64,000 bases of DNA from Sulfurimonas sp. SAG-AH-194-C21. Its GTDB lineage: Bacteria > Campylobacterota > Campylobacteria > Campylobacterales > Sulfurimonadaceae. Position numbers and translations under genes: made by a program. Location of the stretch: positions 48,223 to 112,222 of the forward strand of contig NZ_JAEMVC010000004.1 of the NCBI RefSeq assembly GCF_029215985.1, written 5' to 3'. Position 1 is the stretch's first letter. Each line of letters opens with the position of its first letter. The notes beneath the pieces were generated by a model. The model searched no databases, was not told where the DNA came from, and was given only the letters and a program-made list of their open reading frames with translations. Positions 4,766 to 47,463 of this stretch are shown in pieces.

Positions 4766-4828
4766 CCCAACTCAGCTTCACATTTATTTATGTGAATGTT
4801 AGATTTATATACCCATCAGGAGGCTATT

Positions 4829-5104
4829 ATGGCTTTAGATTCGGCTAAAAAACAAGAAATTGTTACAAAATACGGACGTAATGACAACGACACTGGTTCT
4901 AGTGAAGTTCAAATTGCATTATTAACTACAAGAATTGCAGAGTTAACTGAGCACTTAAAGATTTTCAAAAAAGATCATGCATCACGTTTAGGACTTCTTA
5001 AACTTGTTGGTAAACGTCGTCGTTTAATGAGATACTTCAAGCGTGTTAACAAAGAAGCATATCTTAACCTTGTAGAGTCTCTACAAATCCGTGATAACAT
5101 CTAG
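4829..5104 (+). CDS. rpsO: 30S ribosomal protein S15
   Basis: [36 protein letters not shown]...; start moved to 4829 (ATG after CAGGAGG SD); the ORF track start at 4796 adds a non-homologous extension. Confidence 0.96.
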
Positions 5105-5220: not shown

Positions 5221-5295
5221 ATACAACTAATTCAATTTTAATTTAGTTTACAAAGAGTACCATCATATCAATTGAATTTTATATGGAGGTTTATA

Positions 5296-5724
5296 ATGTC
5301 GACAAATGATAAAGATATTGGTACTGAAGGTCTAACATATTTAGATGATGGAGAAGTACTATACACTGATTTGTATCTTCTATCTGAGACTGATGAAAAG
5401 GGTATAGTAAGTTATGCTAGTGATTCTTTTTTAAAAGTTGCAAATATGAAGGAAAGTGATCTAATAGGTCAACCACATAATGTTGTTAGACATCCAGATA
5501 TGCCAAGAGCTGCTTTTAAATCACTTTGGGATGATGTTCAAACAAAAGGTTTTTGGACAGGTTATGTTAAAAACCAGCGTAAAGGCGGAGGATATTACTG
5601 GGTATATGCAACAGTACTCCGTTCAGTTGATAAAAGTGGAAATACAAAATATGTTTCAATACGAGTTAAACCTTCACGTGAAGATATTCAAAAAGCTGCT
5701 GAGCTTTATGCAACATTAGATTAA
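5296..5724 (+). CDS. Stand-alone PAS-domain protein (Aer/CetB-like)
   Basis: YLLSETDEKGIVSYASDSFLKVANMKESDLIGQPHNVVRHPDMPRAAFKSLWDDVQTKGFWTGYVKNQRKGGGYYWVYATV: Aer-type PAS; no TM or output domain. Preferred start ATG 5296 after GGAGG. Confidence 0.85.
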   Translation: MSTNDKDIGTEGLTYLDDGEVLYTDLYLLSETDEKGIVSYASDSFLKVANMKESDLIGQPHNVVRHPDMPRAAFKSLWDDVQTKGFWTGYVKNQRKGGGYYWVYATVLRSVDKSGNTKYVSIRVKPSREDIQKAAELYATLD

Positions 5725-5741
5725 GATAAAAGGATTATAAA

Positions 5742-7631
5742 ATGGCATTAATGAAAAAAAATGGTTCGGGCTCATCTTCTGCAGTTGTATCTTCAGGTGG
5801 AGTCGATAAACGCAAGCAGAGAACATTAGCAAAACAACAACAAATTAGTGAGAGTATCGCTGGTGTTTCTATGAGTATTTTAGAAAATGCTCAAGAGAGT
5901 GTAAGTGCAATCGAAGAGTTGAAATCTTCAATGGAACAGATAGCAACAGCTGCTGAAGAAAATAGTGGAGCAAGTGAGCAAGCACTTTCAAATGTGAAGA
6001 ACATTAGTTCAAACATTGGTAAAATGACTACAACTATTAATGCAGTAACAGCATCAACGCTTTCTGCTGGTGAAAGTATTATGTCAGCTGTTAGTAAAAT
6101 CAATGTAAGTGTTGATAGAATGGGAAGTGCAGTAAATGTTGCAAAAGAGTCTTCTAAAAAAAGTGAAGAGCTCAAAGAATCTTCACAAAATATTGGAAAT
6201 GCAGTTGGCTTTATCGCAAAGATTGCTGATCAAACAAATTTACTTGCATTAAATGCAGCTATTGAAGCAAGTCGCGCAAAAGAGCATGGTAAAGGTTTTG
6301 CAGTTGTAGCTGATGAAACACGTGCTTTAGCGGGTGAGAGTGAGAAAAATGCTGAGTTTATTTCAGAACTAGTGAATAAAATTCAGACAAGTATTGATGC
6401 TATTATTAAAAGTATTGGTGCAACGACAGATATTATTTCTGGAAATGGTTCTAAGGGTAATGCCTTAGCTCTAAAGATGGAAGAACTTACAAAAATTGCA
6501 GTTTACTCAGTAGAGGCTGCTAGAAGTATAGGTTCATATACAAGTCAGCTTGGTGATTTTATTGAAAAGATTAATACTGGTTCTGGTGATATAGCAAAAG
6601 CATCAGGTGAGATAGCACTTTCAGTTGAAAAAACGCTTAACTCTATAGAGGTTCAGTCTGATGCACTTGGACAAACTGAAGATGATATAAAAGAACTCTC
6701 AAACCTTGCAGAAGAGTTAAAATACTCAACTGATACTATGAAGTCTGCTGAAGATATTGCACTGAGTGCAGATACTATTAGTGCTTCAATGGATGAGATT
6801 CAAAATGCACTTGAAGATGTAACAAGTTCACTCAACCAAATGGAAGAGTCATCTCAAAATACTAATCAGAGTGCGTTAAATAATAAAGAACTTGTTGAAG
6901 CAGGACTCTTAACAGCTAAAGATATTGATAAACTTATAGAAATCGCAAGAAGAAACTTTGACCTTTTAAAAGTATCGTTTAATGAGGTTAAATCATCGGT
7001 TGTTGAGATTAAAACATCATTTGGTGACTCAATAGAAGAAGGAAATACTGCAGGAACCGAGTTAAATATAATCGTTAAAGAGACAAAAAGTGTTGATAAA
7101 ACAGTTGGAAATATCTCTAATTCTATCGTACAGTTAAATATGCTTGCTATTAGTGGTTCTATTGAAGCTGCTCGTGCTGGTGACTTTGGAAAAGGTTTTG
7201 CAGTTGTTTCAGCTGACATTAGAAACTTAGCAAAAGATTCTGAAAGTAATACTGAAAAAATTAATGATATCGTTGAGTCGATGAATTCTGAAATAGATAC
7301 AGTTAAAACAGACTGGGGTGATTTACTACATTCTCAAGGTACAGAAGAGGGGAATATTGATTCTCTTGTTAATGATATAACAGTTATTACAGATGTTCTT
7401 GTTGATTTACTAGATAAATATACAGGACTTAAAGCTGCAAATGATCAAAATCTAGAAGGTATGAATCAGGTGATGATTGGTATTAGTGAGATTCAAAAAG
7501 CAGTGGAACTCAGTGCTAAAAATGCAAGTGAATCACGTAAAGCAAGTGAGTTGATTATAGATACTGTGACACATATCGGTGAAGGTGTTGAAGAGTTAGC
7601 AGTTATGGCAGATGAGCTACAACAAGGTTAA
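5742..7631 (+). CDS. Soluble methyl-accepting chemotaxis protein with two signalling-tip modules
   Basis: No hydrophobic TM segments. Tip 1: IADQTNLLALNAAIEASRAKEHGKGFAVVADETRALA; tip 2: VQLNMLAISGSIEAARAGDFGKGFAVVSADIRNLA. Confidence 0.88.
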   Translation: MALMKKNGSGSSSAVVSSGGVDKRKQRTLAKQQQISESIAGVSMSILENAQESVSAIEELKSSMEQIATAAEENSGASEQALSNVKNISSNIGKMTTTINAVTASTLSAGESIMSAVSKINVSVDRMGSAVNVAKESSKKSEELKESSQNIGNAVGFIAKIADQTNLLALNAAIEASRAKEHGKGFAVVADETRALAGESEKNAEFISELVNKIQTSIDAIIKSIGATTDIISGNGSKGNALALKMEELTKIAVYSVEAARSIGSYTSQLGDFIEKINTGSGDIAKASGEIALSVEKTLNSIEVQSDALGQTEDDIKELSNLAEELKYSTDTMKSAEDIALSADTISASMDEIQNALEDVTSSLNQMEESSQNTNQSALNNKELVEAGLLTAKDIDKLIEIARRNFDLLKVSFNEVKSSVVEIKTSFGDSIEEGNTAGTELNIIVKETKSVDKTVGNISNSIVQLNMLAISGSIEAARAGDFGKGFAVVSADIRNLAKDSESNTEKINDIVESMNSEIDTVKTDWGDLLHSQGTEEGNIDSLVNDITVITDVLVDLLDKYTGLKAANDQNLEGMNQVMIGISEIQKAVELSAKNASESRKASELIIDTVTHIGEGVEELAVMADELQQG

Positions 7632-7637
7632 AAATAG

Positions 7638-9014
7638 GTGCAAATTATGCAAATTGAAGAGATTCTAATCATTAAAAATGCTCAAGAAAGTTATGCTATC
7701 TCAACTGATGACATTAACCAAATTTCTAGAGTTCCAGAACTGATGCCTTTACCTTTACGTCCCTATGGTACGAGAGGTTTATGCTCAGTAGGTGGAAATA
7801 TAGTCTCAATGGTTGACATGAATCAACTGCTTAATATTGAAGAAGTTGATATTAAGGATCATAAAAGTAGAGTCATAAGTTTAAATGAAAACCTCTCATC
7901 AAACACACTACTTGTAAGTGATGTATACAATACAGTAGAAATAGACCAAAGTAGAATTGAATACATAAGTAAAGAAGATGATCCTGTTATCGCGATATAT
8001 AAGTATGAGAAGAGTCTTGTGCAAGTACTTTCTTTGGAAAAGTTGTTTTCTAAAATGAATAAGGTCTCTATAGAAGTAGAGGAAATCGCATCAGGTAAGA
8101 TAAAAGATACGTTAAAAACAGAAGAACCGAGTAATCGCTTTCTTATTTTTTCGATGGGAAATGAGCAGTATGCTTTAGAAATTGACTATTTACAAGAGAT
8201 TATATTAGCTGATAATGATTATACGGATGTGGCCGGTAGTGATGATGACTTATTAGGGCTTATAACACTTAGAGATAAGCTACTTATGGTAATAGACTTA
8301 CGAATTTACTATGGGTTTAAACCTCAAGAGAATGATGCTAATAGAATCCTTGTTATTTCTTATAATAATAAAAAAATTGGTTTATGTATAGATGCTATTG
8401 TTGATATTAAAAGTTTTTATAAAAAAGATATAGAGTACCTAAGTGATACATTTGATGGTAATAAAATAGCGGGTGTAATTCATGATGAAGAGAGTATTAT
8501 TTCATTTTTTAATGACAAACTACTCAATGAAATTTTGACTAAAAATGATACCTTTATAGAATCATCAACTAAAAATGATGATGATGATGATGATGATGAA
8601 AATTTTGCAATGGAAGCCATTGTGTTTAAATTGGCCTCAAAAGAGTATGCATTTGATGTACAAAGTGTTGATGAAATTATCGATATTGTAGACTCTACTA
8701 ATGTTGCGTTTACAGACCGTGCCATTGATGGTATTATAAATATTCGTGGGCAAATTGTTACAATGCTTTCTCTGTTTAGTAAGTTAAACATTGATACATA
8801 TGTCAATGAAGAGTCTAAGATTATTGTCTGTAATATTGCAGATAATAGAATAGGATTTGTTGTTGATAGTGTAAGTGACATACTTATCATAAAAGAAGAA
8901 GATATTCGTAAGGAAGATGATCAATACTTTAGTGGTGTGCTCTCTTTAGATGCGGGAGAGAGACTGGTACTACTTATGGATATAGAAAAAATCGTAACTA
9001 AGGAACTAACATAA
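7638..9014 (+). CDS. CheW-type scaffold with three CheW domains
   Basis: Three CheW-like repeats: ...EEILIIKNAQESYAISTDDINQI...GLCSVGGNIVSMVDM; ...FLIFSMGNEQYALEIDYLQEI...GLITLRDKLLMVIDLR; ...AIVFKLASKEYAFDVQSVDEI...GIINIRGQIVTMLSL. A D7 linker precedes the third. Confidence 0.85.
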   Translation: MQIMQIEEILIIKNAQESYAISTDDINQISRVPELMPLPLRPYGTRGLCSVGGNIVSMVDMNQLLNIEEVDIKDHKSRVISLNENLSSNTLLVSDVYNTVEIDQSRIEYISKEDDPVIAIYKYEKSLVQVLSLEKLFSKMNKVSIEVEEIASGKIKDTLKTEEPSNRFLIFSMGNEQYALEIDYLQEIILADNDYTDVAGSDDDLLGLITLRDKLLMVIDLRIYYGFKPQENDANRILVISYNNKKIGLCIDAIVDIKSFYKKDIEYLSDTFDGNKIAGVIHDEESIISFFNDKLLNEILTKNDTFIESSTKNDDDDDDDENFAMEAIVFKLASKEYAFDVQSVDEIIDIVDSTNVAFTDRAIDGIINIRGQIVTMLSLFSKLNIDTYVNEESKIIVCNIADNRIGFVVDSVSDILIIKEEDIRKEDDQYFSGVLSLDAGERLVLLMDIEKIVTKELT

Positions 9015-10084
9015 TGGGAAAAAGCATATTAATTGTTGATGACTCAGCACTTGTTCGAAAACAACTCAGTGAGATGATAGAGACACTCGGATTTGAGATT
9101 GAATTTGCAAAAAATGGAAAAGAAGCTGTAGATAAGGCAACATCTCACCAATATGATGTGATTACTATGGATATAAATATGCCAATTATGGATGGTATCG
9201 AGGCTGTAAGTCAAATAATGCAAGCACAGCCGACACCTATTCTTATGGTAAGCTCTTTAACAACAGAAGATGCAACTATTACTATGGATGCACTTGATCT
9301 TGGTGCAATAGATTACATAGCTAAACCAGGGACTATGAATGTTGGGAAAAATGAAAATCGTGAAGAGATTTTAAGTAAAGTAAGTTCTTTAAGTCGTATA
9401 TCTACAAGACGATTAAAGCGTCAAATGTCAAGACCACCAGTAAGAGAACGCCGTCGAACACAATCTTCAAGTGCAGAGACAAAGGTTTTAGAAGCGAGAA
9501 CATCTAAAGAGATAGAAAAAGTAGTGCTTATCGGTTCATCTACAGGTGGACCAGGTCTGATAGAGCAGATATGCTCTTCTTTACCTGTAAACTTTAAACA
9601 TCCTGTTTGTATAGTACAGCATATGCCTGAGCAGTTTACTGCTGCATTTGCACAGCGTTTAGATAGAGCTGCGATACTTCCTGTTTTAGAATCAAAACAA
9701 AATATGGAACTTTTACCTGGGCATATTTATGTTGCTCGAGGTGGTGTTCATATGCATTTTGCAAAAAAAGTTTCAGGCAAGATAGTTATACGAGAAGAAA
9801 AAGACAAAGGTGCAAGTTTTTTTCAACCAAGTGTAAATGAGATGATGAATAGCGCTGCAGAAGTTTTTGAGTGTAAAAACCTTGTTGGAGTTATACTTAC
9901 TGGTATTGGTGATGATGGTGCTGATGCAATGGTAAGAATAAAAAAAGATGGTGCATACACCATAGCTGAGAGTGAAGAGAGTGCAACTGTATATGGTATG
10001 CCAAAAGAGGCTTATGATAGAGGTGGTGTTTCTGAGCAACTTAGCTTTAAAGATATACTTAAAAAAGTATCTACATTAAGATAA
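9014..10084 (+). CDS. cheB: Chemotaxis response regulator protein-glutamate methylesterase CheB
   Basis: Receiver (VDDSALVRKQLSEM...TMDINMPIMDGIEAV) plus GSSTGGPGLIEQI, QHMPEQFTAAFAQRLD, GVILTGIGDDGADAM. Confidence 0.95.
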   Translation: MGKSILIVDDSALVRKQLSEMIETLGFEIEFAKNGKEAVDKATSHQYDVITMDINMPIMDGIEAVSQIMQAQPTPILMVSSLTTEDATITMDALDLGAIDYIAKPGTMNVGKNENREEILSKVSSLSRISTRRLKRQMSRPPVRERRRTQSSSAETKVLEARTSKEIEKVVLIGSSTGGPGLIEQICSSLPVNFKHPVCIVQHMPEQFTAAFAQRLDRAAILPVLESKQNMELLPGHIYVARGGVHMHFAKKVSGKIVIREEKDKGASFFQPSVNEMMNSAAEVFECKNLVGVILTGIGDDGADAMVRIKKDGAYTIAESEESATVYGMPKEAYDRGGVSEQLSFKDILKKVSTLR

Positions 10085-10100
10085 TGATGGAGGTGAGACA

Positions 10101-10724
10101 ATGGCATTAGTTAAAAAACATGTAAAACAAGTTGTAGAAGAGTTAGTAACATATACAAATTTAGATGATGCTACAGAAGCTTTTAATGCAACTGATGATG
10201 ATTCAGAGAAAGATTATATAATTGATGAAATTGTAAAGTTTCATGCTGGTGGAGAGTTTTTAATTGATTATATTCATCAAGTAGATGCACATAGACCTGT
10301 TTCAACAAAAATTGCTTCTGCAATTTCTTCTATGGATCCAGATGAAGCACCTATTGAAAAAATAATGGAACTACTGAAGCTTGAAAATGCATATATAAGA
10401 AACCTTGGTATCTCAATGTTGAGAGATTTCGGTGATTCTATTAAGTATTATATTGTGAAGTTTTTAATAGGTGATGATAGAGATTTAAGAATCTTTGCTA
10501 TTAATGTTTTAGGTGATGTGAGTTTTAGTGAATCAAGAGAGATGTTGTTAGAACTACTTGAGACTGAAGAAGATATAAATGTGGCTATGACAGCAGTAGA
10601 TTACATGGGTGAGATTGGTGAAGTTAAGGACATTCCTCTTTTAGAGTCTTTAAAGACACGTTTTAAAGATGAAGTTTATGTAGAGTTCGCCGTTGATGGT
10701 GCAGTTACAATGATAAAAGGATAA
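10101..10724 (+). CDS. HEAT-repeat protein
   Basis: Helical repeats such as EKIMELLKLENAYIRNLGISMLRDFGDS and DDRDLRIFAINVLGDVSFSESREMLLELLE. Confidence 0.75.
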   Translation: MALVKKHVKQVVEELVTYTNLDDATEAFNATDDDSEKDYIIDEIVKFHAGGEFLIDYIHQVDAHRPVSTKIASAISSMDPDEAPIEKIMELLKLENAYIRNLGISMLRDFGDSIKYYIVKFLIGDDRDLRIFAINVLGDVSFSESREMLLELLETEEDINVAMTAVDYMGEIGEVKDIPLLESLKTRFKDEVYVEFAVDGAVTMIKG

Positions 10725-10729
10725 AAAGT

Positions 10730-11560
10730 ATGGCTTACTTGTTATCTAAAGAAAATTTTACCAAAATGGGTGAGTTTATTTATAGAAAAAGTGGTATCCA
10801 CTTAGAAATGAGTAAACACTACGATAAGTTGGCAAAATTTATTGACAGTAGAGCACTTGAACTTGGACTTGAAAACTTTAGAAAGTATTTTTTTAAGCTG
10901 CGTTTTGAAGATAAAGAAGGTTTAGAGTTTCAAGAACTTATGAACGCTATTACGGTAAATGAGACATACTTTTTTAGAGAAAAAGATCAGTTTGAAGTTC
11001 TTGTAAATAAAATTTTACCAGAGTTACATGCAAAATTACCAGCTTCGAAACCCTTGAGAATTTTATCTTCTCCTTGTTCAACAGGTGAAGAGCCGTATTC
11101 TATTATTCTTCATATTGTTGAAGAAGGAAAGGTAGTCGAAGAGAGAGATATTGAAGTTGTTGGTATTGATATTGATTCTACTGTTATTAAAAAAGCACAG
11201 ATTGCTAAGTATAGTGACAGGTCAATTCATGCAATACCTAAAGATATTCTTGCCAAGTGGTTTAAAAAGAGAGCACTTGGTTACGAACTGGGTGAAGACT
11301 TACAGGGGAGTGTTGATTTTCAAGTTGTTAATATATTTGACAAAGCGCAAATGCGTAAACTTGGAAAGTTTGATATTATTTTTTCAAGAAATATGCTTAT
11401 CTATTTTGATGATGCATCAAGAAAAGAAGTTGCAATGACATTTTATGACATGCTCAATCCAGGTGGTTATGTCCTTTTAGGACATGCTGAATATATGAGT
11501 CGAATTGTTTCGGTATTTAATGCCAAAAAGATCGACAGTACTTTAATATATCAAAAATAA
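10730..11560 (+). CDS. cheR: Chemotaxis protein methyltransferase CheR
   Basis: MNAITVNETYFFREKDQFEVL, SSPCSTGEEPYSIIL, FDIIFSRNMLIYFDD. Confidence 0.95.
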   Translation: MAYLLSKENFTKMGEFIYRKSGIHLEMSKHYDKLAKFIDSRALELGLENFRKYFFKLRFEDKEGLEFQELMNAITVNETYFFREKDQFEVLVNKILPELHAKLPASKPLRILSSPCSTGEEPYSIILHIVEEGKVVEERDIEVVGIDIDSTVIKKAQIAKYSDRSIHAIPKDILAKWFKKRALGYELGEDLQGSVDFQVVNIFDKAQMRKLGKFDIIFSRNMLIYFDDASRKEVAMTFYDMLNPGGYVLLGHAEYMSRIVSVFNAKKIDSTLIYQK

Positions 11561-11581
11561 TTTAATAAAAAGGAAAAAATA

Positions 11582-11956
11582 ATGCCATTAGTAATATTTG
11601 TAGATGATAGTGAGACCGCTTTAGCGTCAACGAGAATGGTTACCAACTCAATGCCTATAGAGGTAAAACAGTATACAGAAGCTCAAGTTGCCCTCGCTGA
11701 GATAAAAGCAGGAATGACTCCAGATTTAATTATAACAGACTTAAATATGCCTGTAATGAATGGTTTTGAGTTTTTAAAAGAGTTACGAGCAGTGCCGGCA
11801 ACGAAAAGAACACCCACATTGATGCTAACAACTGAAACAAAACCAGAATTAAAACAACAGGGTAAAGCACTTGGTCTTACAGGCTGGATAGTAAAACCAT
11901 TTAATCCAGCACAGCTTAAACAAGCTATATCTAGAGTACTGCGTTTACCTGCATAA
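11582..11956 (+). CDS. CheY-like single-domain response regulator
   Basis: VDDSETALASTRMV...LIITDLNMPVMNGFEFL...TLMLTTET...GWIVKPFNPAQL. Confidence 0.92.
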   Translation: MPLVIFVDDSETALASTRMVTNSMPIEVKQYTEAQVALAEIKAGMTPDLIITDLNMPVMNGFEFLKELRAVPATKRTPTLMLTTETKPELKQQGKALGLTGWIVKPFNPAQLKQAISRVLRLPA

Positions 11957-11966
11957 GGGATATAAG

Positions 11967-12359
11967 ATGATGATGCTTGAATCGATAGATGAATTACTGA
12001 GTCATATTAAAGATGTGCAGCTGGATGTTATAGAGTTGTCTAGTGAATCTTTAATGAAAATGAGTGCTTTTATGGAAAAGAATGGACTTGAAATTGATGA
12101 AGATATTTCGACTGCTCTTCAGTACCAAGATATTATAACGCAGCAGTTAAATGCAACTATTGAAGCTATTGAGAGTATGAAGCAGAGCATTGATATGTTT
12201 TCGCATGCTTTTAAAAGCGATGAGGGTTTAGCACAGCAGAGTATTGTGAAATTGCAAGAAAAGTTACAAGTGACGCTTAAAGAAGCAAAAGAGAAGAAAA
12301 GTAGATTTTCTGGTAAACACTCAGCAGAACATGCTGATGATGAAATAGAATTTTTTTAG
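11967..12359 (+). CDS. Small helical protein, candidate CheZ-like phosphatase
   Basis: Contains ALQYQDIITQQL (D-x-x-x-Q as in the CheZ active helix) and acidic/aromatic C-terminus DDEIEFF; located between two CheY genes. Confidence 0.55.
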   Translation: MMMLESIDELLSHIKDVQLDVIELSSESLMKMSAFMEKNGLEIDEDISTALQYQDIITQQLNATIEAIESMKQSIDMFSHAFKSDEGLAQQSIVKLQEKLQVTLKEAKEKKSRFSGKHSAEHADDEIEFF

Positions 12360-12365
12360 GAGAAT

Positions 12366-12734
12366 ATGATGTCAACAATAATGGTTGTAGATGATTCAAA
12401 AACGGTAAGAAACTATCATAGTGCTATACTCAAGTCAATGGGTATGGAAATAGTAGAAGCTGAAAATGGCATGGAAGCACTTGAAAAAAGTTTAGGTGCC
12501 CAGATAGACTTGTATCTCGTTGATGTAAATATGCCAATTATGGACGGATATTCTTTTATAAAAGATTTACGCAAACAAGAAGAACATAAGAATGTACCTG
12601 TGATTATGGTTACTACTCAAGCTAAAGAAGAAGATAAGATAAATGCTTACAAAGTTGGAGCAAATCTTTTTGAAACTAAACCTATAAAACCTGACCAACT
12701 TCAAGCATATATAGATATTTTAGTAAAGAAATAG
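12366..12734 (+). CDS. CheY-like single-domain response regulator
   Basis: MVVDDSKTVRNYHSAIL...LYLVDVNMPIMDGYSFI...VIMVTTQAK...FETKPIKPDQL. Confidence 0.93.
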   Translation: MMSTIMVVDDSKTVRNYHSAILKSMGMEIVEAENGMEALEKSLGAQIDLYLVDVNMPIMDGYSFIKDLRKQEEHKNVPVIMVTTQAKEEDKINAYKVGANLFETKPIKPDQLQAYIDILVKK

Positions 12735-12743
12735 GAGAACATT

Positions 12744-15518
12744 ATGGATCAATTATTAGAACAATTTTTAAGTGAAGCCCGTGAAAACTTAGCCTTTATC
12801 GATCAAAACATTGCTGAGATTGGTGGTGATGACCCCGAATTACTCAACTCAGTATTTCGTGCTGCACATACACTCAAAGGTGGAAGTGGTATTGTCGGTT
12901 TTGAAGCTGTTAAAAATATCACGCACCATGCAGAAGATTTACTTGATATGCTTCGTGGTGGTAAGTTAGAGTTTAAAGAATCTATGGTTGAAGTACTCTA
13001 TGATGCTTTTGATGAAGTAGTTAACTTAATTGAAGCCGCTGAAGAAACAGGTGATATTGTTGAAGCAGATGAAGAAACAATAGCTACTTTAGTCGCTAAC
13101 TTAAGTGCACAAATGGGCAAAGAAGTTGAAGGTGAGAAAGTGTGGGCTTGTCCATTTACTTATGCAGATAGAGAAGATGTCCTTAATCTACCTCTGGGTA
13201 CCTTACGGGGTGTAAATAGTGCTAAAGCTAATTTTAACAATACTGAAGTAGATGAAATCTTTTGTAATGAGCCAAACTTATATGCAGTAACTTTTGACAT
13301 AGATGATTCATGTATGGTTTACGGAAATGATCCTGTTTATACACTAAGTCTACTTGGTGATAAAGTTCTTGGTGTCTTTTCATGTATGGGTGATGAAAAT
13401 GCGAAGGGTGTTCTCAGCGGAACTGAAGATGAAGATGGACTTTTACTAAAAACTTCTTTAGTTGCATTTATCCATGCTACATATGAAGAGATAGAAGATT
13501 CATTATTTAACTTTATTGATGAGTTGACTTTTTTACCTCTAGATATAAATAGTTTGTTGAGTATCTCAAACGGAGATACCGGTCTTCAGATAGACTCATT
13601 AAAAGAGTTAGCTAGTATTGCTGAAGATTTAGACTTGAATGCTATAAAAGATGAAGTCTCAAGTGCTATGGATCTTGTAGGTGTGGATACAATTCAGTAT
13701 GCTAAAATAGAGCGCTTTTTAGACATAGTTGGATTGATAAAAGAAGAAGATACAGCTAAACTAGGTGCTTTTTTCTCCTCTTTATCCATAGGTGAAGCAT
13801 ATACTAATAGTGCTGAAGTAAGTCAAGAAGCAGTTGTAGGTACTGATACAAAAGTTGAGAAAAAAGATGAAACACAATTTGAAGTCTCAGCAGAAGAACT
13901 AGATGAAAATATCAAACCTGTTTTACATAGTATCTTTGAACAGCAGAAAAAAGCGATAGAATATATTGAGAATGATGAAGATTTACTTCGTGTTGTTGTG
14001 ACACTTGAAAATGCACGAAAATATATACCTGATATGCCGGAGTTAACAACACTACAAGATGTAGAGGCATTTTTAAATACTCAGTTGGGACTAGAAAGCA
14101 GTTCAGTTGAACCTACTCCTGTAGTAGTAGAAGAAGTTAAAACTATACAAAAGAAAGAAGTTGTTGTAGAGAGCGTTGCTAAAATAGTTCCCGAAGTTGT
14201 AAAGCAGGAGAGTGCACCTGCTGTCATAGCCGAAGTGCTTGTGGAAACTCCAAGTGTAAAAGCAGTCAAAACTGTTGCGAAAAAAGCAGTCAAAGAAGAA
14301 AAACAAAAGGCTGTTGTTGGTAAGACTGTAAAAGTAGAACAAGAATCTATTGACTCACTTATGAATGTTGTAGGAGAACTACTTGTTGCGAAAAACTCGC
14401 TTCCATATTTAGCTGATAATGTTGTAGGTATGACACATGAGCAGATTAAACGAGAGATTATGGATAAGTATATCTTTATAAACCGTCTCTCAGAGCAACT
14501 ACAAGACCTTATTATGGGTATGCGTATGCTACCTATTTCTTATGTATTTGATAGATATCCAAAACTTGTTCGTGATATTGCTAAAACATTAAGTAAAAAA
14601 GTGAAGTTAGAGATGATTGGTGGTGAGACGAAGTTAGATAAAAATATGATAGAGATGTTAGCTGACCCTATGATTCACATCATGAGAAACTCACTTGACC
14701 ATGGTATCGAAACACCAGAAACTCGTGAACAAAAGGGTAAGAACCCAATGGGTTTAGTGAAGTTAAATGCATATGCACAGTCTGATAGAATTATTATAGA
14801 AATTGTAGATGATGGTGCTGGAATTAATGTAGAAAAAGTTGCAAGTAAAGTACTAGAAAAAGGTCTTATGACTTCTGAAGAGATTGATGCACTGAGTGAA
14901 AAAGAGATGGCAGAACTAGTACTACTTCCAGGTCTTTCAACTGCTGATTCTATTACAGAGTTTAGTGGACGGGGCGTTGGTATGGATGTTGTAAAAAAAT
15001 CTATCGAGGGCTTTGGTGGAACTATTGGTATTGTTACAAAAGCAAATGTAGGAACTACCATAACACTCGCTATCCCGATGTCTTTAGCTGTTACTTCACT
15101 TCTTCATATAGAGATGAATCATATTCATTATGGTATCCCAATGGATAGTGTAAGTGAAACTGTTAAAATTGAACGCGAAAGTATAGAGTACTTACATAAT
15201 GAACCATTTATTTATATTCGTGGGGATGTAATTCCTCTTCTGTTTATAAAAAGTATGCTTAACGAAGAAGATATGGAAAATAAACCACTTTCAATTGTTG
15301 TTTTAAACATTAAAGACAATTTACTTGCAGTAGTTGTAAATACATTTTTAGGACAACTTGATGTTGTACAAAAACCTCTCGTTGGTATAATGGAAGGACA
15401 TCCACTTTTTAGTGGAACAGCCCTTCTTGGAAATGGACAAATTATTATGGCAATGGATCCATTAGGATTATTAGGTATTAGTCAAAAACTAAAAGAAGAT
15501 ATACAAATAGTAGCATAA
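12744..15518 (+). CDS. cheA: Chemotaxis histidine kinase CheA (924 aa)
   Basis: Hpt HTLKGGSGIVGF; HATPase DPMIHIMRNSLDHGIE, DDGAGI, GRGVGMDVVKK; C-terminal CheW-like domain. Confidence 0.95.
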   Translation: MDQLLEQFLSEARENLAFIDQNIAEIGGDDPELLNSVFRAAHTLKGGSGIVGFEAVKNITHHAEDLLDMLRGGKLEFKESMVEVLYDAFDEVVNLIEAAEETGDIVEADEETIATLVANLSAQMGKEVEGEKVWACPFTYADREDVLNLPLGTLRGVNSAKANFNNTEVDEIFCNEPNLYAVTFDIDDSCMVYGNDPVYTLSLLGDKVLGVFSCMGDENAKGVLSGTEDEDGLLLKTSLVAFIHATYEEIEDSLFNFIDELTFLPLDINSLLSISNGDTGLQIDSLKELASIAEDLDLNAIKDEVSSAMDLVGVDTIQYAKIERFLDIVGLIKEEDTAKLGAFFSSLSIGEAYTNSAEVSQEAVVGTDTKVEKKDETQFEVSAEELDENIKPVLHSIFEQQKKAIEYIENDEDLLRVVVTLENARKYIPDMPELTTLQDVEAFLNTQLGLESSSVEPTPVVVEEVKTIQKKEVVVESVAKIVPEVVKQESAPAVIAEVLVETPSVKAVKTVAKKAVKEEKQKAVVGKTVKVEQESIDSLMNVVGELLVAKNSLPYLADNVVGMTHEQIKREIMDKYIFINRLSEQLQDLIMGMRMLPISYVFDRYPKLVRDIAKTLSKKVKLEMIGGETKLDKNMIEMLADPMIHIMRNSLDHGIETPETREQKGKNPMGLVKLNAYAQSDRIIIEIVDDGAGINVEKVASKVLEKGLMTSEEIDALSEKEMAELVLLPGLSTADSITEFSGRGVGMDVVKKSIEGFGGTIGIVTKANVGTTITLAIPMSLAVTSLLHIEMNHIHYGIPMDSVSETVKIERESIEYLHNEPFIYIRGDVIPLLFIKSMLNEEDMENKPLSIVVLNIKDNLLAVVVNTFLGQLDVVQKPLVGIMEGHPLFSGTALLGNGQIIMAMDPLGLLGISQKLKEDIQIVA

Positions 15519-15529
15519 GGAGCTTTGTG

Positions 15530-16294
15530 ATGACAGATTTAATTGTTTTTAGTGTTGCTGAAAATAAATATGCAATGAATATTGAAAATGTTCAGCGTAT
15601 TATAGAGTCAACCTCTCTGACTACTATTCCTAATGCTCATGCATTTATTGATGGAATGATGTCTTATGAAGAGAAGGTCATAAAAGTACTCAGTTTTCGT
15701 AAACTGATACAGATGAATACATATAAAAATGATTTAGAGATTCTTTTTGAAGGTCTAAAAAAAGGACATGCTGAGTGGATAGCTTCTCTAAAAATTTCTT
15801 TAGAAACTGGTGCTACTTTCTCAAAAACATTAGACCCTCATGCCTGTGGACTTGGTAAATGGATAGACACATTTACTGCATATGATGATAAGGTCATAGA
15901 GATTTTAAATGAGCTTATGGAGTATCATAAGCAGCTTCATATAACAGGTTCAATTGCACTAGATATGTATAAAAAAGATGAGGAAGAAGCACTTAGAATG
16001 TTTAATGTAGATATTGCACAAATATATGCACATACTATGGGTGCACTTGAATCATTTACTCAAGAGTTAGACTTAGTCGCTGATTCACTTCAAAAGTTGA
16101 TTATTTACGAGAATGAAGGTGCTTTTTTTGCTATTAAAGTAGATACTATTGAAGATATCGCTCATGTTGATGAGAGTGATTTTACCAACTCAACTGAAAA
16201 GCATGAATCAAGTGACTTTTTAGAATTAGATAATGTTTTAGATTTAGACGGTGTTTTAATTAATGTAATTAAAACAATAAAACTACCAAGGTAA
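15530..16294 (+). CDS. CheW-like protein with an inserted CZB (chemoreceptor zinc-binding)-like domain
   Basis: CheW-like N-part (LIVFSVAENKYAMNIENVQRII) and C-part (IIYENEGAFFAIKVDTIEDI...LDGVLINVIKTI) flank KGHAEWIASLK...PHACGLGKWID...EYHKQLH. ATG at 15530 preferred over GTG 15527. Confidence 0.8.
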   Translation: MTDLIVFSVAENKYAMNIENVQRIIESTSLTTIPNAHAFIDGMMSYEEKVIKVLSFRKLIQMNTYKNDLEILFEGLKKGHAEWIASLKISLETGATFSKTLDPHACGLGKWIDTFTAYDDKVIEILNELMEYHKQLHITGSIALDMYKKDEEEALRMFNVDIAQIYAHTMGALESFTQELDLVADSLQKLIIYENEGAFFAIKVDTIEDIAHVDESDFTNSTEKHESSDFLELDNVLDLDGVLINVIKTIKLPR

Positions 16295-16304
16295 GGAAAA
16301 TAAG

Positions 16305-16574
16305 ATGTCAATTACATATGAAAAAAATGAAGTTAATTTTACTTCTGTAATATATGAAGATGAAGTGGTTAGTTTTAGAGACTTTTTACAAGAAAAAGCG
16401 GGTGAAGCAGTTTCTTTTAACTTTAATGAGTGTGAAGATATTCATCTCGCAATTTTACAGCTTATAATGGCATATAAAAAAAACTATGAGTGTTCTTATA
16501 TATTTGGTGATACAAAAAAATTATTTCAGACTGTTTTAGAAGGATTTGTGACTAGTGAAAACCATTGTAGTTAG
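16305..16574 (+). CDS. Small STAS-like protein
   Basis: 89 aa; DIHLAILQLIMAYKKNYECSYIFGDTKKLFQTVLEGF resembles the C-terminal half of single-domain STAS proteins; overlaps the next start. Confidence 0.5.
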   Translation: MSITYEKNEVNFTSVIYEDEVVSFRDFLQEKAGEAVSFNFNECEDIHLAILQLIMAYKKNYECSYIFGDTKKLFQTVLEGFVTSENHCS

Positions 16575-17295
16575 TAATCGTAAGGGTGGCTCAGCTAAAA
16601 CAACAACTGCTGTAAATATAGCAAGTGGTTTAGCAAAAAAAGGTTCAGTCCTTTTACTTGATTTAGATACACAAGGTCATGCTTCTATCGGTGTTGGCTG
16701 TGAGCCTAGTGAAGAGCTTGGCATACACTCGATTTTTGAAGGTAGAACATTAAGTGAGACTTTTATTCCAACAGTACACAAAAATCTCACCCTTTCACCA
16801 GCCTTAGTAAACTTTGATGTGTATGAGTATGCAGATTTAAGAGGGATTTTAAAAAATCGCTTTAAACGTGAAAAAATTGCAGACTTTTTTGACTACTGTG
16901 TAATAGACACACCACCAACCTTTGATGCACTTTTAAAAAACTCTCTTGAAGTTGCAGATAGTGTACTTATTCCTTTTGTTCCTCATCATTTAGGTGTTGT
17001 AGCAGTTGGACAGATGCTTAGAGCACTCTACAAAAGTGCAAAAGCTCAAGAAAGGGAAATAGCAGATGTATCGATACTCCCTGTTATGTACAACCCTCAT
17101 ATTAATGAGCATAAAGAGTCAGTTCTTAAGGTGAAAACATCATTTGGGGCTGATAAACTTTTATCACCAATAGGTGTGGATATTAAACTTGCACAACAAT
17201 TTGAGAGTGGTAATCCAATTATTCTCGACGCAAAGCGTTCTAAAGGAATGAAAGACTATAATAAATGTGTAGAAGAACTACTTAAAAGGATCTAG
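16555..17295 (+). CDS. ParA/MinD-family ATPase in chemotaxis operon (ParC/PpfA-like role proposed)
   Basis: Deviant Walker A RKGGSAKTTTAVN, LLLDLDTQGHAS, CVIDTPPTFDALL; no ParB adjacent. Confidence 0.9.
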   Translation: MKTIVVSNRKGGSAKTTTAVNIASGLAKKGSVLLLDLDTQGHASIGVGCEPSEELGIHSIFEGRTLSETFIPTVHKNLTLSPALVNFDVYEYADLRGILKNRFKREKIADFFDYCVIDTPPTFDALLKNSLEVADSVLIPFVPHHLGVVAVGQMLRALYKSAKAQEREIADVSILPVMYNPHINEHKESVLKVKTSFGADKLLSPIGVDIKLAQQFESGNPIILDAKRSKGMKDYNKCVEELLKRI

Positions 17296-17298
17296 AAA

Positions 17299-18624
17299 AT
17301 GAATCTACTTATTGTTGATGATAATAAAAATAATCGACTGATGCTTAGTCTTTTATTGGAAGAGTATAGTGAAAACAATGCTGATGTACAATTTTCTATG
17401 GATGAAGCAGTTGATGGTCTAGAAGCAGTTCACATGTGCAAGGCTAAGCACTATGATATGGTGCTTATGGATATCATGATGCCAAATATGGATGGAATTG
17501 AGGCTACAAAGCTTATTCGTCAAAATGATAAAAAGATTATGATCATTGCAGTGAGTGCAGTAGATGATCAAGCGAGACAAAAAGAGATACTAACACAGGG
17601 TGCAGAGGACTACATCTCTAAACCTGTTAATGTTGATATCTTTAATACAAGAATCTCAAACTATATACACCTTATAAATGCTAGAAATAGTGAAAAAGCG
17701 AATAAAATCAATAATGAAAAAGGTATTAATCTTTTTACAAAAGAGATATACAATCGTTATACTAAGTTTAGTCTCGCAAGTGAAGATGCTTTATCTGAAC
17801 TGTGGGAGTGTTTCCTTTTAGAAGGAACTGAAAATTTTGAAGGTTTAAGTGATGTTGTACGAATGATTTTTTCCTTAGGAGAAATGCAGTTGCGTTTAGG
17901 GACTAAAAGTCACCTTATAGTGGAAAGTTCATCTGAGTACCAGTACTTTACTGTCACTAATATTGATGCTGTTCCGACTCAAGTTTTAACACTTCTTTTC
18001 AAGAAAAATGAGGTCACTTCAGAGTATAAGACAGAAGATAATAAACTCTCCTTTAAGCTTAAAAAAATATTTGAAGTTTTTGAAGCAGAAGAACCTATTT
18101 TAGTTGTAGTACCTGAACAGACTATAAAAGTTGAAGAAGCAGTAACGAGTGTAGCGTATGCTTCTGTAGAGTTACAGGTTTTTGACTATTTAGATTCTGA
18201 AGATATGGCTGATTTAGAGGAGTATACTACTAAATTAAACTCTTTGATGCTTGTTGTTGGTAGTGGTGATGTAACAAGTGAGGAAGTAGAAGAAATCTAT
18301 ACTTATATAGAGAGACTAGGTTCAATCCTATCGAGTTATTCTGAAATATATGTGATAGCAGATGCTTTGCGTACTTTAGGAAGCACTATGTCTATTCATA
18401 CGGATATCTTTGTGCAAAACTCTGAGGCATTAGGACCAATGTGCGCAGCCTTTAGTAGAGACTTGATGAGCTGGGCAGAGCAGTCTTTTCATACAGGTGC
18501 ACCAAGTATAGACTTTATGAATGATACTATTGCTGTAAACTGTCAAACAATTGGAAGTATGTTAACGATGGATAGCGCACCAGCTGGTGATGCTGAAGAT
18601 TTTGATGATATTTTTGATTTTTAA
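17299..18624 (+). CDS. Response regulator with long uncharacterised C-terminal region
   Basis: Receiver VDDNKNNRLMLSLLL...MVLMDIMMPNMDGIEAT...AVSAVDD...DYISKPVN followed by ~300 aa unassigned, ending DFDDIFDF. Confidence 0.85.
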   Translation: MNLLIVDDNKNNRLMLSLLLEEYSENNADVQFSMDEAVDGLEAVHMCKAKHYDMVLMDIMMPNMDGIEATKLIRQNDKKIMIIAVSAVDDQARQKEILTQGAEDYISKPVNVDIFNTRISNYIHLINARNSEKANKINNEKGINLFTKEIYNRYTKFSLASEDALSELWECFLLEGTENFEGLSDVVRMIFSLGEMQLRLGTKSHLIVESSSEYQYFTVTNIDAVPTQVLTLLFKKNEVTSEYKTEDNKLSFKLKKIFEVFEAEEPILVVVPEQTIKVEEAVTSVAYASVELQVFDYLDSEDMADLEEYTTKLNSLMLVVGSGDVTSEEVEEIYTYIERLGSILSSYSEIYVIADALRTLGSTMSIHTDIFVQNSEALGPMCAAFSRDLMSWAEQSFHTGAPSIDFMNDTIAVNCQTIGSMLTMDSAPAGDAEDFDDIFDF

Positions 18625-18635
18625 GGAATGCTAGT

Positions 18636-18842
18636 ATGTATAAAGTAAATGTAATGAGTCCCTGTAGTTGTTTTGTGAAAAATGGACTTTGGGATACACA
18701 AGATTTCGATACTAAAGATGAAGCTAAAGTAGAAGCTGAGTCACTCCTAAACAAGATGAAAACAACTTTTTGTTCAAAACATGAGTTCTCTATGAGTGAA
18801 CAGTTTGGAACATACACAATCTACACTAAACCTCGTCGCTAG
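18636..18842 (+). CDS. Small conserved-looking hypothetical protein (68 aa) closing the cluster
   Basis: Clean ORF 11 bp after previous gene; MYKVNVMSPCSCFVKNGLWDTQDFDTKDEAKVEAESLL... Confidence 0.6.
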   Translation: MYKVNVMSPCSCFVKNGLWDTQDFDTKDEAKVEAESLLNKMKTTFCSKHEFSMSEQFGTYTIYTKPRR

Positions 18843-19555
18843 AGAAATATCTCTACGGCTCTAGCTAAATCCTCTTTTGTATCGATTCCAAAACCTGTTG
18901 AAGTGACTTTTACCATTGTGATACTCTTTTGATGATAGATAGCCCGAAGTTGCTCTAATTTTTCTATGTCTTCAATAGGGGCATCTTTAAGTGAGCAGAA
19001 CTCTTGTAAACTTTTTTTAGCAAAACCATAAATCCCTATGTGCCCGAAATACTTTGCTCCTCCACCTTGGTTATAAGGAATGGCAGAGCGCGAAAAGTAG
19101 ATGGCATTATCCTCATCATCTAAAACAACCTTAACAAGATTAGGGTCTTTCGCTGAGTCTGCATTAATAGCATTATAGCAACTGCCCATGATAAAAGGTT
19201 CATTGTCATTTTGTAATTTTTTGAGCTTTTTTATAAGCGACTCAACTACATTAGGTTCTATAAAAGGCTCATCTGCTTGAACGTTAATAATCAGTTCATT
19301 ATCATCTAGGTTTAATATTGTCGCACATTCATGAATACGGTCAGTTCCACTTTTATGAGTCGTAGAGGTAAGCATAGCCTCAATCCCATAAGACTTACAT
19401 ACTTCTATGATTTTTTCATCATCAGCGGCAACGACAACTCTATCTAAATGTGCTACTCTTTGGGCCGTACGAACTACCATAGGAAGCCCACCTATGTCTG
19501 CTAAAACCTTTTGAGGAAAACGTGTTGATGCAAGTCGTGCTGGAATAATAATCAT
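18839..19555 (-). CDS. kdsB: 3-deoxy-manno-octulosonate cytidylyltransferase
   Basis: MIIIPARLASTRFPQKVLADIGGLPMVVRTA...INVQADEPFI; start trimmed to the internal Met. Confidence 0.95.
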   Translation of the reverse strand: MIIIPARLASTRFPQKVLADIGGLPMVVRTAQRVAHLDRVVVAADDEKIIEVCKSYGIEAMLTSTTHKSGTDRIHECATILNLDDNELIINVQADEPFIEPNVVESLIKKLKKLQNDNEPFIMGSCYNAINADSAKDPNLVKVVLDDEDNAIYFSRSAIPYNQGGGAKYFGHIGIYGFAKKSLQEFCSLKDAPIEDIEKLEQLRAIYHQKSITMVKVTSTGFGIDTKEDLARAVEIFL

Positions 19556-19625
19556 AAGAGTAAAGCCTTTATAGGATATAATAAGGAAATTATATCTAAA
19601 CATATTAAAAAGGTCTCTTTCTTAC

Positions 19626-46981: not shown

Positions 46982-47463
46982 TCATCTTCATAAATTACAA
47001 CTGTTCCCGCTAAGAGATCATGTAAGCCGCGTTTATCATCTCTTATAGCAACCATAATGAAACCGATAAGAAATGAAAAAGTAGAAGCGATATAACCAAA
47101 AGATCGAGTTATTGCTTGTCTATTATCGATATCTTGAAAATTTTTAGCATCAACAATTTTAATATGTACAAACTTTTTTCCAGGTGTAGCCCCTTTAAAT
47201 CTTTTCCAAAACAGCATTGTAATAAGTAAAACAGAGACTTCAAAAAGTAGTTCCCATTTGAAGGAGGTTTGCGGTAGAGTATCTAGTGCATGAGTATTCG
47301 CACTCATAGCCATCATCACATTATGTTTATATTGTGAAAAGTCAAACCAGTTACCATCACTTAAAAGGTAGATAACAATTCCAACCGGTAGTGCTAAAAA
47401 AACCGTATCAAGAAGTGAGGCTACAAAACGAATAGTAAAACCTGCATATCTAATAGTGCCCAT
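46978..47463 (-). CDS. RDD family membrane protein
   Basis: YAGFTIRFVASLLDTVFLALPVGIVIYLL...GATPGKKFVHIKIVDAK. Confidence 0.85.
   Translation of the reverse strand: MGTIRYAGFTIRFVASLLDTVFLALPVGIVIYLLSDGNWFDFSQYKHNVMMAMSANTHALDTLPQTSFKWELLFEVSVLLITMLFWKRFKGATPGKKFVHIKIVDAKNFQDIDNRQAITRSFGYIASTFSFLIGFIMVAIRDDKRGLHDLLAGTVVIYEDD

What the first reader, a model, noticed from the sequence alone, without database searches (positions are those of the whole stretch)
5272..18842. Fifteen-gene chemosensory cluster with a ParA ATPase: candidate self-positioning cytosolic array
Seen: an uninterrupted same-strand run of PAS, soluble MCP, CheWx3, CheB, HEAT, CheR, CheY, CheZ-like, CheY, CheA, CheW-CZB, STAS-like, ParA, receiver+novel C-term, and a small Cys protein. 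Known: in Rhodobacter sphaeroides the ParA homologue PpfA partitions cytoplasmic chemoreceptor clusters with TlpT, and ParC positions polar arrays in Vibrio. Inference: this cluster encodes a complete cytosolic array, sensing through PAS and Zn/redox modules, that is spatially segregated by its own ParA. The combination of HEAT, STAS, CheW-CZB, triple CheW and tandem-tip MCP is unlike standard Campylobacter/Helicobacter Che sets. It may correspond to an already named chemosensory class I cannot assign.
Basis: partly seen in the sequence, partly recalled or inferred. Interest (0 to 1): 0.85.

Follow-up and report, generated by a model that had tools for sequence, protein, structure and literature searches.

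The report
F9 cytoplasmic chemosensory cluster with ParA
This is a complete set of genes for a soluble, two-layered sensing array of a known but functionally obscure kind (class F9, best studied in the cholera bacterium), here in environmental sulfur bacteria and equipped with its own ParA ATPase, a protein of the kind that moves and shares out cargo when cells divide, plus redox and zinc sensing parts.

Summary
In detail: fifteen same-strand genes, window 5296-18842, gaps of at most 21 nt. One correction matters: "CheWx3" is a single protein with three CheW domains. HEAT and STAS-like genes are ordinary F9 parts, found in the same places in alpha- and betaproteobacterial F9 clusters. The ParA is not a chromosomal Soj: it belongs to an F9-associated branch shared with Methylosinus and Methylobacterium F9 clusters, is absent from several other F9 clusters, and co-occurs with CheW3 in 119 related genomes (24 both, 3 discordant, 92 neither), even where the two sit at separate loci. 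Gene order is conserved in 52 Campylobacterota contigs; an F9-negative genome has an empty rpsO-kdsB site. Best explanation: a cytosolic redox/zinc-sensing F9 array, positioned by its own ParA (inferred, untested). New details: an Aer/CetB-type PAS, CZB inserted inside a CheW, CheYs lacking most FliM-binding residues, and a response regulator whose middle domain resembles anti-sigma factor RsbW. Verdict: new variant of a known kind; the published survey read here reports only partial F9 sets in this phylum.

The parts
5296..5724 (+). PAS-only sensor of Aer/CetB type (142 aa), with the FAD-site Arg-His-x-Asp
   Evidence: phmmer to Aer PAS 8dik E 1.3e-27; VRHPDMP motif; role of the residues from PMC2628428
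5742..7631 (+). DosM-type soluble chemoreceptor with two signalling domains in tandem (629 aa)
   Evidence: two MCPsignal matches; 60-91% identical orthologues in conserved order
7638..9014 (+). CheW3: three concatenated CheW domains (458 aa)
   Evidence: three Pfam CheW stretches, E 1.6e-68
9014..10084 (+). CheB, receiver plus methylesterase
10101..10724 (+). HEAT-repeat protein, an F9 core gene between cheB and cheR
   Evidence: HEAT_2 E 3.9e-13; same place in L125-L128, L140, L141
10730..11560 (+). CheR methyltransferase
11582..11956 (+). CheY1, single receiver; phospho-acceptor site kept, most FliM-binding residues not (Y106 to W, W58 to L, K119 to A; K91 kept)
11967..12359 (+). CheZ-like putative phosphatase, YQDIITQ motif and EIEFF C-terminus
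   Evidence: motif and tail in the orthologues read; no Pfam match
12366..12734 (+). CheY2, single receiver; FliM-binding residues mostly absent (Y106 to F, W58 to V, K119 to Y; K91 kept)
12744..15518 (+). CheA with Hpt, dimerisation, ATPase and CheW domains and a long central linker
   Evidence: catalytic motifs
15527..16294 (+). CheW with a zinc-binding CZB domain inserted inside the CheW fold
   Evidence: leaving the insert out gives one continuous CheW match, 71.5 bits; zinc ligands kept in 51-55 of 58
16305..16574 (+). STAS-like F9 core protein (89 aa), its end overlapping parA by 20 nt
   Evidence: hhalign to the alpha/beta F9 small protein, probability 97; STAS_2 weak; overlap
16555..17295 (+). 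ParA-type ATPase of an F9-associated branch (246 aa), deviant Walker A KGGSAKTT
17299..18624 (+). Response regulator: receiver, RsbW-like (anti-sigma-type, degenerate) domain, CheA-P1-like helical domain, C-terminal DDIFDF
   Evidence: AlphaFold2 pLDDT 86 and 83; Foldseek; tail
18636..18842 (+). Small CxC...CxxH protein (68 aa), likely metal-binding
   Evidence: motif conserved in the orthologues listed; no family match

Best explanation
The locus is one operon-like cassette encoding a full class F9 chemosensory system. DosM bridges two CheA/CheW3 baseplates and so builds a soluble, two-layered receptor array (shown for V. cholerae F9, inferred here by orthology). Inputs are likely internal: an Aer/CetB-type flavin PAS protein reporting redox or respiratory state and a CheW carrying a zinc/oxidant-sensing CZB domain. 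CheA phosphorylates CheB, two CheY proteins that lack most motor-binding residues, and probably the receiver of the three-domain regulator at 17299; a CheZ-like protein resets them. The output is therefore probably not direct control of the flagellar switch. The ParA, whose gene overlaps the STAS-like gene, is most likely the dedicated positioning ATPase of this array, so that the cytosolic cluster is placed and inherited rather than diffusing. Shown: class, gene content, conservation, ParA lineage and co-occurrence with F9. Inferred: array formation, sensing, phosphotransfer and positioning. The ParA partner is unknown; the STAS-like protein is the leading candidate, CheW-CZB the second.
For: F9 signature DosM + CheW3 with the F9 order DosM-CheW3-CheB-HEAT-CheR-CheY-CheA-small STAS gene, the same in Methylosinus, Methylobacterium, Eleftheria, Sphaerotilus and Azospirillum and as defined in PMC9321776 and PMC7534058. 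52 Campylobacterota contigs carry the complete core, STAS and ParA in the same order; 71 of 80 ParA contigs carry CheA. ParA and CheW3 in 119 relatives: both 24, CheW3 only 2, ParA only 1, neither 92 (Fisher p 9e-22; genomes are related, so the p overstates). In two genomes (G380, G382) ParA lies at another locus than the F9 core, yet both are present. ParA groups with the alphaproteobacterial F9 ParAs against Soj, 100/100, and the Methylosinus F9 ParA is the only plasmid hit at E 1e-30 among 72,556 plasmids. The cassette is absent as a unit in G307, where rpsO and kdsB are 63 bp apart. No membrane spans.
Against: No experiment. Soj-type DNA-contact residues are not strictly kept (R189 position His, R218 position Lys/Asn/other), so nucleoid binding is uncertain. 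The DosM N-terminal tail, which would be the TlpT-like partner, is similar in ParA-less F9. Several F9 systems do without ParA (L126, L128, L140, L141). One genome (G210/G381) has STAS-ParA-kinase-regulator-Cys protein but neither DosM nor CheW3, so the ParA module may work without an array, unless the assembly is missing the core. The two alphaproteobacterial ParAs are long branches in the tree.
Confidence: 0.62

Rival explanations
1. ParA, STAS-like protein and the receiver-RsbW-like regulator form a separate signalling output module (partner switching or a phospho-controlled switch), and the ParA is a signalling ATPase rather than a positioner of the array.
For: STAS is next to ParA in nearly all loci; the regulator's middle domain matches anti-sigma factors UsfX, RsbW and SpoIIAB and the whole protein's best PDB match is LvrC, a receiver plus anti-sigma domain; a histidine kinase gene sits between ParA and the regulator in several relatives; the module persists in G210 without DosM or CheW3.
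Against: Foldseek E-values are only 0.01-0.1; no ATP-binding N-box is visible and the STAS has His where SpoIIAA/RsbV has the phospho-Ser; F9 STAS exists without ParA or the regulator in other classes; the module follows the F9 core in nearly all genomes; no regulator match was found in the ParA-bearing L078, L087, L088, L101 stretches.
Confidence: 0.2
2. ParA anchors the F9 array to a cell pole or to the membrane-bound F3 chemotaxis array (ParC/ParP-like), not to the nucleoid.
For: V. cholerae F9 components were reported polar at low oxygen (PMC11940527); the Soj DNA contacts are weakly conserved; a CheW-domain protein, as in ParP, lies beside ParA in Campylobacterota.
Against: No ParP-type protein found; the alphaproteobacterial ParA+ clusters have no extra CheW; the CheA linker is longer in ParA+ F9 but not homologous between lineages, so no LID-like domain was shown.
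Confidence: 0.12
3. ParA is a hitchhiker from a plasmid or island and serves DNA partition, not the array.
For: The cassette is patchy within the genus and some F9 clusters lie on plasmids.
Against: No ParB follows it, it overlaps the STAS gene, it is distinct from plasmid and Soj ParA, and it co-occurs with F9 across families even when unlinked.
Confidence: 0.03

Closest known systems
Vibrio cholerae cluster I / class F9 (DosM VC1403, CheW3 VC1402, CheA VC1397)
   Same: DosM, CheW3, CheB, CheR, CheY and CheA; class-defining proteins; purely soluble arrays.
   Different: The sources read mention no ParA in F9 (V. cholerae's ParC serves F6). Here ParA, a CheZ-like protein, a CheW or CheW-CZB, a three-domain regulator, a Cys protein and an Aer/CetB-type PAS protein are added. 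V. cholerae sequences themselves were not compared.
F9 clusters of Methylosinus trichosporium pOB3b_01 and Methylobacterium currus
   Same: F9 core in the same order, followed directly by STAS-like and ParA genes.
   Different: CheW3 about 22%, ParA 33-37% identical; no CheZ-like, CheW-CZB, three-domain regulator or Cys gene.
Rhodobacter sphaeroides CheOp3 cytoplasmic cluster with PpfA and TlpT
   Same: A ParA-type ATPase encoded with a soluble chemoreceptor cluster.
Vibrio ParC/ParP
   Same: ParA-family ATPase linked to a chemosensory system.
   Different: Polar, membrane array (F6), needs ParP and the CheA LID; neither was found here.
LvrC of Leptospira (receiver plus RsbW-like domain)
   Same: Receiver followed by a Bergerat-like domain; best full-length PDB match of the 17299-18624 protein.
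   Different: Extra CheA-P1-like helical domain and DDIFDF tail; no ATP-binding N-box seen; confidence of the fold match is modest.
Campylobacter jejuni CetB / E. coli Aer PAS
   Same: PAS-only (CetB) protein with the Aer FAD-site Arg-His-x-Asp.
   Different: Encoded with a soluble receptor lacking membrane parts instead of CetA.

Membership tests
Chemosensory class F9 | Soluble receptor with two signalling domains (DosM) | tested here: met
   two MCPsignal stretches in one 629-aa ORF, no membrane span
Chemosensory class F9 | CheW with three concatenated CheW domains | tested here: met
Chemosensory class F9 | F9 gene order with CheB, (HEAT), CheR, CheY, CheA | tested here: met
   same order as annotated F9 plasmid clusters, with CheZ-like and CheY2 added between CheY1 and CheA
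Chemosensory class F9 | 44H receptor signalling domain length | not tested
   no class HMMs at hand
Chemosensory class F9 | Double-layered cytoplasmic array about 35 nm high | not testable with these tools
   needs cryo-tomography
ParA-type ATPase | Deviant Walker A KGGxxKTT and ParA fold family | tested here: met
   SNRKGGSAKTTT; Soj structures matched at about E 1e-21
ParA-type ATPase | Nucleoid-binding basic residues (Soj R189, R218 equivalents) | tested here: inconclusive
   His, and Lys/Asn/other, at these positions
PpfA-type array-partitioning ATPase | Encoded in a cytoplasmic-receptor operon | tested here: met
PpfA-type array-partitioning ATPase | Receptor N-terminal tail as stimulating partner | tested here: inconclusive
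   DosM has a basic N-tail, but so do DosMs of ParA-less F9
PpfA-type array-partitioning ATPase | Same ParA clade as PpfA | not tested
   no PpfA sequence obtained
Vibrio ParC/ParP | ParP and CheA LID domain | tested here: inconclusive
   no ParP recognised; longer CheA linker in ParA+ F9, not homologous between lineages
Chromosomal Soj/ParA | Neighbouring parB and Soj clade | tested here: not met
   no ParB in the cluster; separate side of the tree, 100/100
CheZ | QDxxxQ phosphatase motif | tested here: met
   kept in the orthologues read
CheZ | Pfam/NCBIfam CheZ match | tested here: not met
   none; filed as CheZ-like only
RsbW/LvrC-type anti-sigma domain | Bergerat fold | tested here: inconclusive
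   top Foldseek hits are anti-sigma factors, prob 1.00, but E 0.01-0.1
RsbW/LvrC-type anti-sigma domain | ATP-binding N-box and G boxes | tested here: not met
   absent from the conserved columns of A4/A9, by inspection
CZB | 3His/1Cys zinc site | tested here: met
   H81, C107, H134 and H138 kept in 51-55 of 58

The most novel reading that the evidence does not exclude
F9 arrays exist in a ParA-partitioned subtype, spread across Campylobacterota and Alphaproteobacteria, in which a STAS-like core protein is the array-side adaptor of the ParA and a receiver-RsbW-like-P1-like regulator, fed by the array's CheA, links the array's redox/zinc state to a partner switch that controls transcription or ParA cycling. 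This would be a signal-controlled positioning or non-flagellar output not described for F9 in the papers read.
Probability: 0.2. Interest if true: 0.85.

Novelty: new variant of a known kind. Interest (0 to 1): 0.52.

Why it matters
The function and the placing of F9 cytoplasmic arrays are open questions; in V. cholerae deletion of the F9 kinase gave no phenotype under standard conditions (PMC7534058). Here is an F9 version with its own ParA, an identifiable redox PAS, a zinc-sensing coupling protein and a distinct response regulator, present in some Sulfurimonas-genus genomes and absent from close relatives at an empty site. That gives a natural comparison and a short list of testable parts (positioning, input, output) for a class whose purpose is unknown. 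It also shows that the STAS-like and HEAT genes, not mentioned in the F9 passages read, are conserved F9 core genes.

Tried and rejected
Rejected: three separate cheW genes (one ORF). Rejected: ParA as chromosomal Soj or plasmid partition protein. Tested and not discriminating: a DosM N-terminal tail unique to ParA-bearing F9. Tested: an extra CheA domain tied to ParA, as LID is to ParC; linkers are longer in ParA+ F9 (566-603 against 410-489 residues between phospho-His and N-box) but share no homology between lineages. First thought that L115 and L120 showed the ParA module living without an array; whole-genome searches found DosM and CheW3 elsewhere in both, leaving only G210 as a real exception. 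Family libraries gave nothing for the regulator C-terminus, the Cys protein or the CheZ-like protein. PDB profile search with the STAS-like alignment found only chance hits. Promoter and terminator scans were at chance level. Could not centre genome searches outside the phylum, so Vibrio F9 was compared through papers only; the DosM paper, one paper tried for the original class scheme and the PpfA paper were not held.
Full report
What is there. The window lies in a 2.2-Mb, 88% complete genome of 103 contigs; its nearest relatives in named collections are Sulfurimonas MAGs. Fifteen + strand genes run from 5296 to 18842 with spacings between -20 and +21 nt. They lie between rpsO (4796-5104, +) and a KdsB-type gene (18839-19603, -); the names rpsO and KdsB rest on my reading of the sequences. 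The important correction is that the three CheW domains lie in one 458-residue protein, and the MCP carries two signalling domains in one soluble chain.

Class. A receptor with double signalling domains (DosM) and a concatenated triple CheW (CheW3) are described as architectures unique to class F9 (PMC9321776), the class of V. cholerae cluster I, whose arrays are purely cytoplasmic and two-layered, bridged by DosM (PMC7534058). Annotated F9 clusters on plasmids of Methylosinus, Methylobacterium, Eleftheria, Sphaerotilus and Azospirillum show the same order, DosM-CheW3-CheB-HEAT-CheR-CheY-CheA-small gene. The HEAT gene and the small gene are thus F9 core genes and not oddities of this window. 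The small gene after cheA is the homologue of the window's STAS-like gene (hhalign probability 97) and matches STAS_2 weakly. It has a near-invariant His followed by LQ (HxAxLQ) where SpoIIAA/RsbV-type proteins have the phosphorylated serine (the comparison with SpoIIAA/RsbV rests on my knowledge of those proteins).

Conservation. Of 80 Campylobacterota contigs fetched with the ParA, 71 carry CheA and 52 carry the complete core, STAS and ParA in canonical order; many of the rest are cut by contig ends. A cyclically permuted order occurs in L078, L087 and L088. The downstream genes KdsB, methyltransferase, YkgJ-like, TPR and TrpC are kept in many Sulfurimonas loci. In G307, a one-contig genome of the same genus without F9, FlhA-Rrf2-rpsO-KdsB-methyltransferase follow each other with 63 bp between rpsO and KdsB: the fifteen genes are one cassette, present or absent as a unit. 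The published survey read here reported only partial F9 sets in this phylum (Nitratiruptor, Nautilia), so full F9 in Sulfurimonas, Sulfuricurvum and Arcobacter-labelled MAGs is an extension.

The ParA. It has the deviant Walker A motif, no ParB neighbour, and is mostly 61-95% (50-56% in a few distant cases) identical among F9-bearing Campylobacterota but only about 35% identical to their chromosomal Soj. Among 72,556 plasmids its only hits at E 1e-30 are the F9 ParA of Methylosinus; the Methylobacterium F9 ParA is among the few further hits down to E 1e-22, the rest being ordinary or unexamined ParA proteins. In a maximum-likelihood tree the Campylobacterota and alphaproteobacterial F9 ParAs lie on one side (100/100) against Soj and two plasmid ParAs, with the caution that the alphaproteobacterial rows are long branches. 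They share SNRKGG or ANRKGG for the Soj ANQKGG, and a DIxLAxxF stretch for the Soj PRNVKLAESP. In 119 related genomes CheW3 and this ParA are both present in 24, discordant in 3, both absent in 92. In G380 and G382 the ParA module and the F9 core are at different loci but both present. This co-occurrence without linkage is the best evidence that ParA works with the array. G210/G381 is the one exception: STAS, ParA, a receiver-PAS histidine kinase, the regulator and the Cys protein, but no DosM or CheW3. Nucleoid binding cannot be judged from sequence: the two Soj DNA-contact positions hold His and Lys/Asn/other (which Soj residues contact DNA is from my own knowledge).

Inputs. The PAS protein matches the E. 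coli Aer PAS domain at E 1.3e-27 and has the Arg-His-x-Asp triad needed for FAD binding in Aer; like C. jejuni CetB it has no other domain. The second CheW holds a CZB domain inside the CheW fold: the two halves join into one continuous Pfam CheW match when the insert is left out. Its zinc ligands are kept in 51-55 of 58 sequences, and relatives (L046, L054 and others) have the same CheW without the insert. CheW-CZB fusions are known (PMC8262984), and CZB proteins there sense zinc and HOCl.

Outputs. CheY1 and CheY2 keep the phospho-acceptor site but not W58, Y106 or K119, which PMC9321776 uses with K91 to mark motor-binding CheYs, so direct motor control is unlikely. The CheZ-like protein has the QDxxxQ motif and ends in EIEFF; the three-domain regulator ends in DDIFDF. 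Both tails resemble the CheY-docking tail of CheZ in character; this is inference. AlphaFold2 models of the regulator (pLDDT 86 and 83) show a receiver, a middle domain whose best PDB matches are anti-sigma factors (UsfX, RsbW, SpoIIAB) and a helical domain matching CheA P1; the best full-length match is LvrC, a receiver plus anti-sigma regulator. E-values of the trimmed search are only 0.01-0.1 for these, weaker for CheA P1, and no ATP-binding box or phospho-His is conserved, so this is a lead. In several relatives a histidine kinase gene sits between parA and the regulator.

Judgement. Class F9 membership is secure (about 0.95). A ParA dedicated to the F9 system is well supported (about 0.85). 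That it positions or partitions the array is the most likely function (0.62) but untested; the main rival is a STAS/RsbW-like signalling module in which ParA plays another part (0.2).

Noticed in passing
L116/L044 (G210) 7808-11874: STAS-ParA-(receiver-PAS-histidine kinase)-regulator-Cys gene group in a 99% complete genome that lacks DosM and CheW3: either a leftover after loss of F9 or an independent system.
   Followed up: partly
L143 and L120 (same genome, G382): F9 core ending in STAS at one locus, ParA-kinase-regulator at another locus beside rpsO, FlhA and Rrf2, the same upstream neighbours as in the window.
   Followed up: yes
window 12744-15518: CheA linker between phospho-His and N-box is longer in ParA-bearing F9 (566-603 residues) than in ParA-less F9 (410-489), without homology between lineages; few cases, possibly chance.
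   Followed up: partly
window 18636-18842: Tiny CxC...FCxKHxF protein without any family match, ending the operon; a likely metal or redox protein.
   Followed up: no
L078, L087, L088: F9 cluster in cyclically permuted order (HEAT...ParA, then PAS-DosM-CheW3-CheB) with no CheZ-like, regulator or Cys match in the fetched stretch.
   Followed up: no
window 47463-49601 and 51246-53228, - strand: Two GGDEF-EAL proteins (one with a PAS domain) near each other, outside the finding.
   Followed up: no
L145 (G307): Empty site: rpsO and kdsB 63 bp apart in an F9-negative genome of the same genus.
   Followed up: yes
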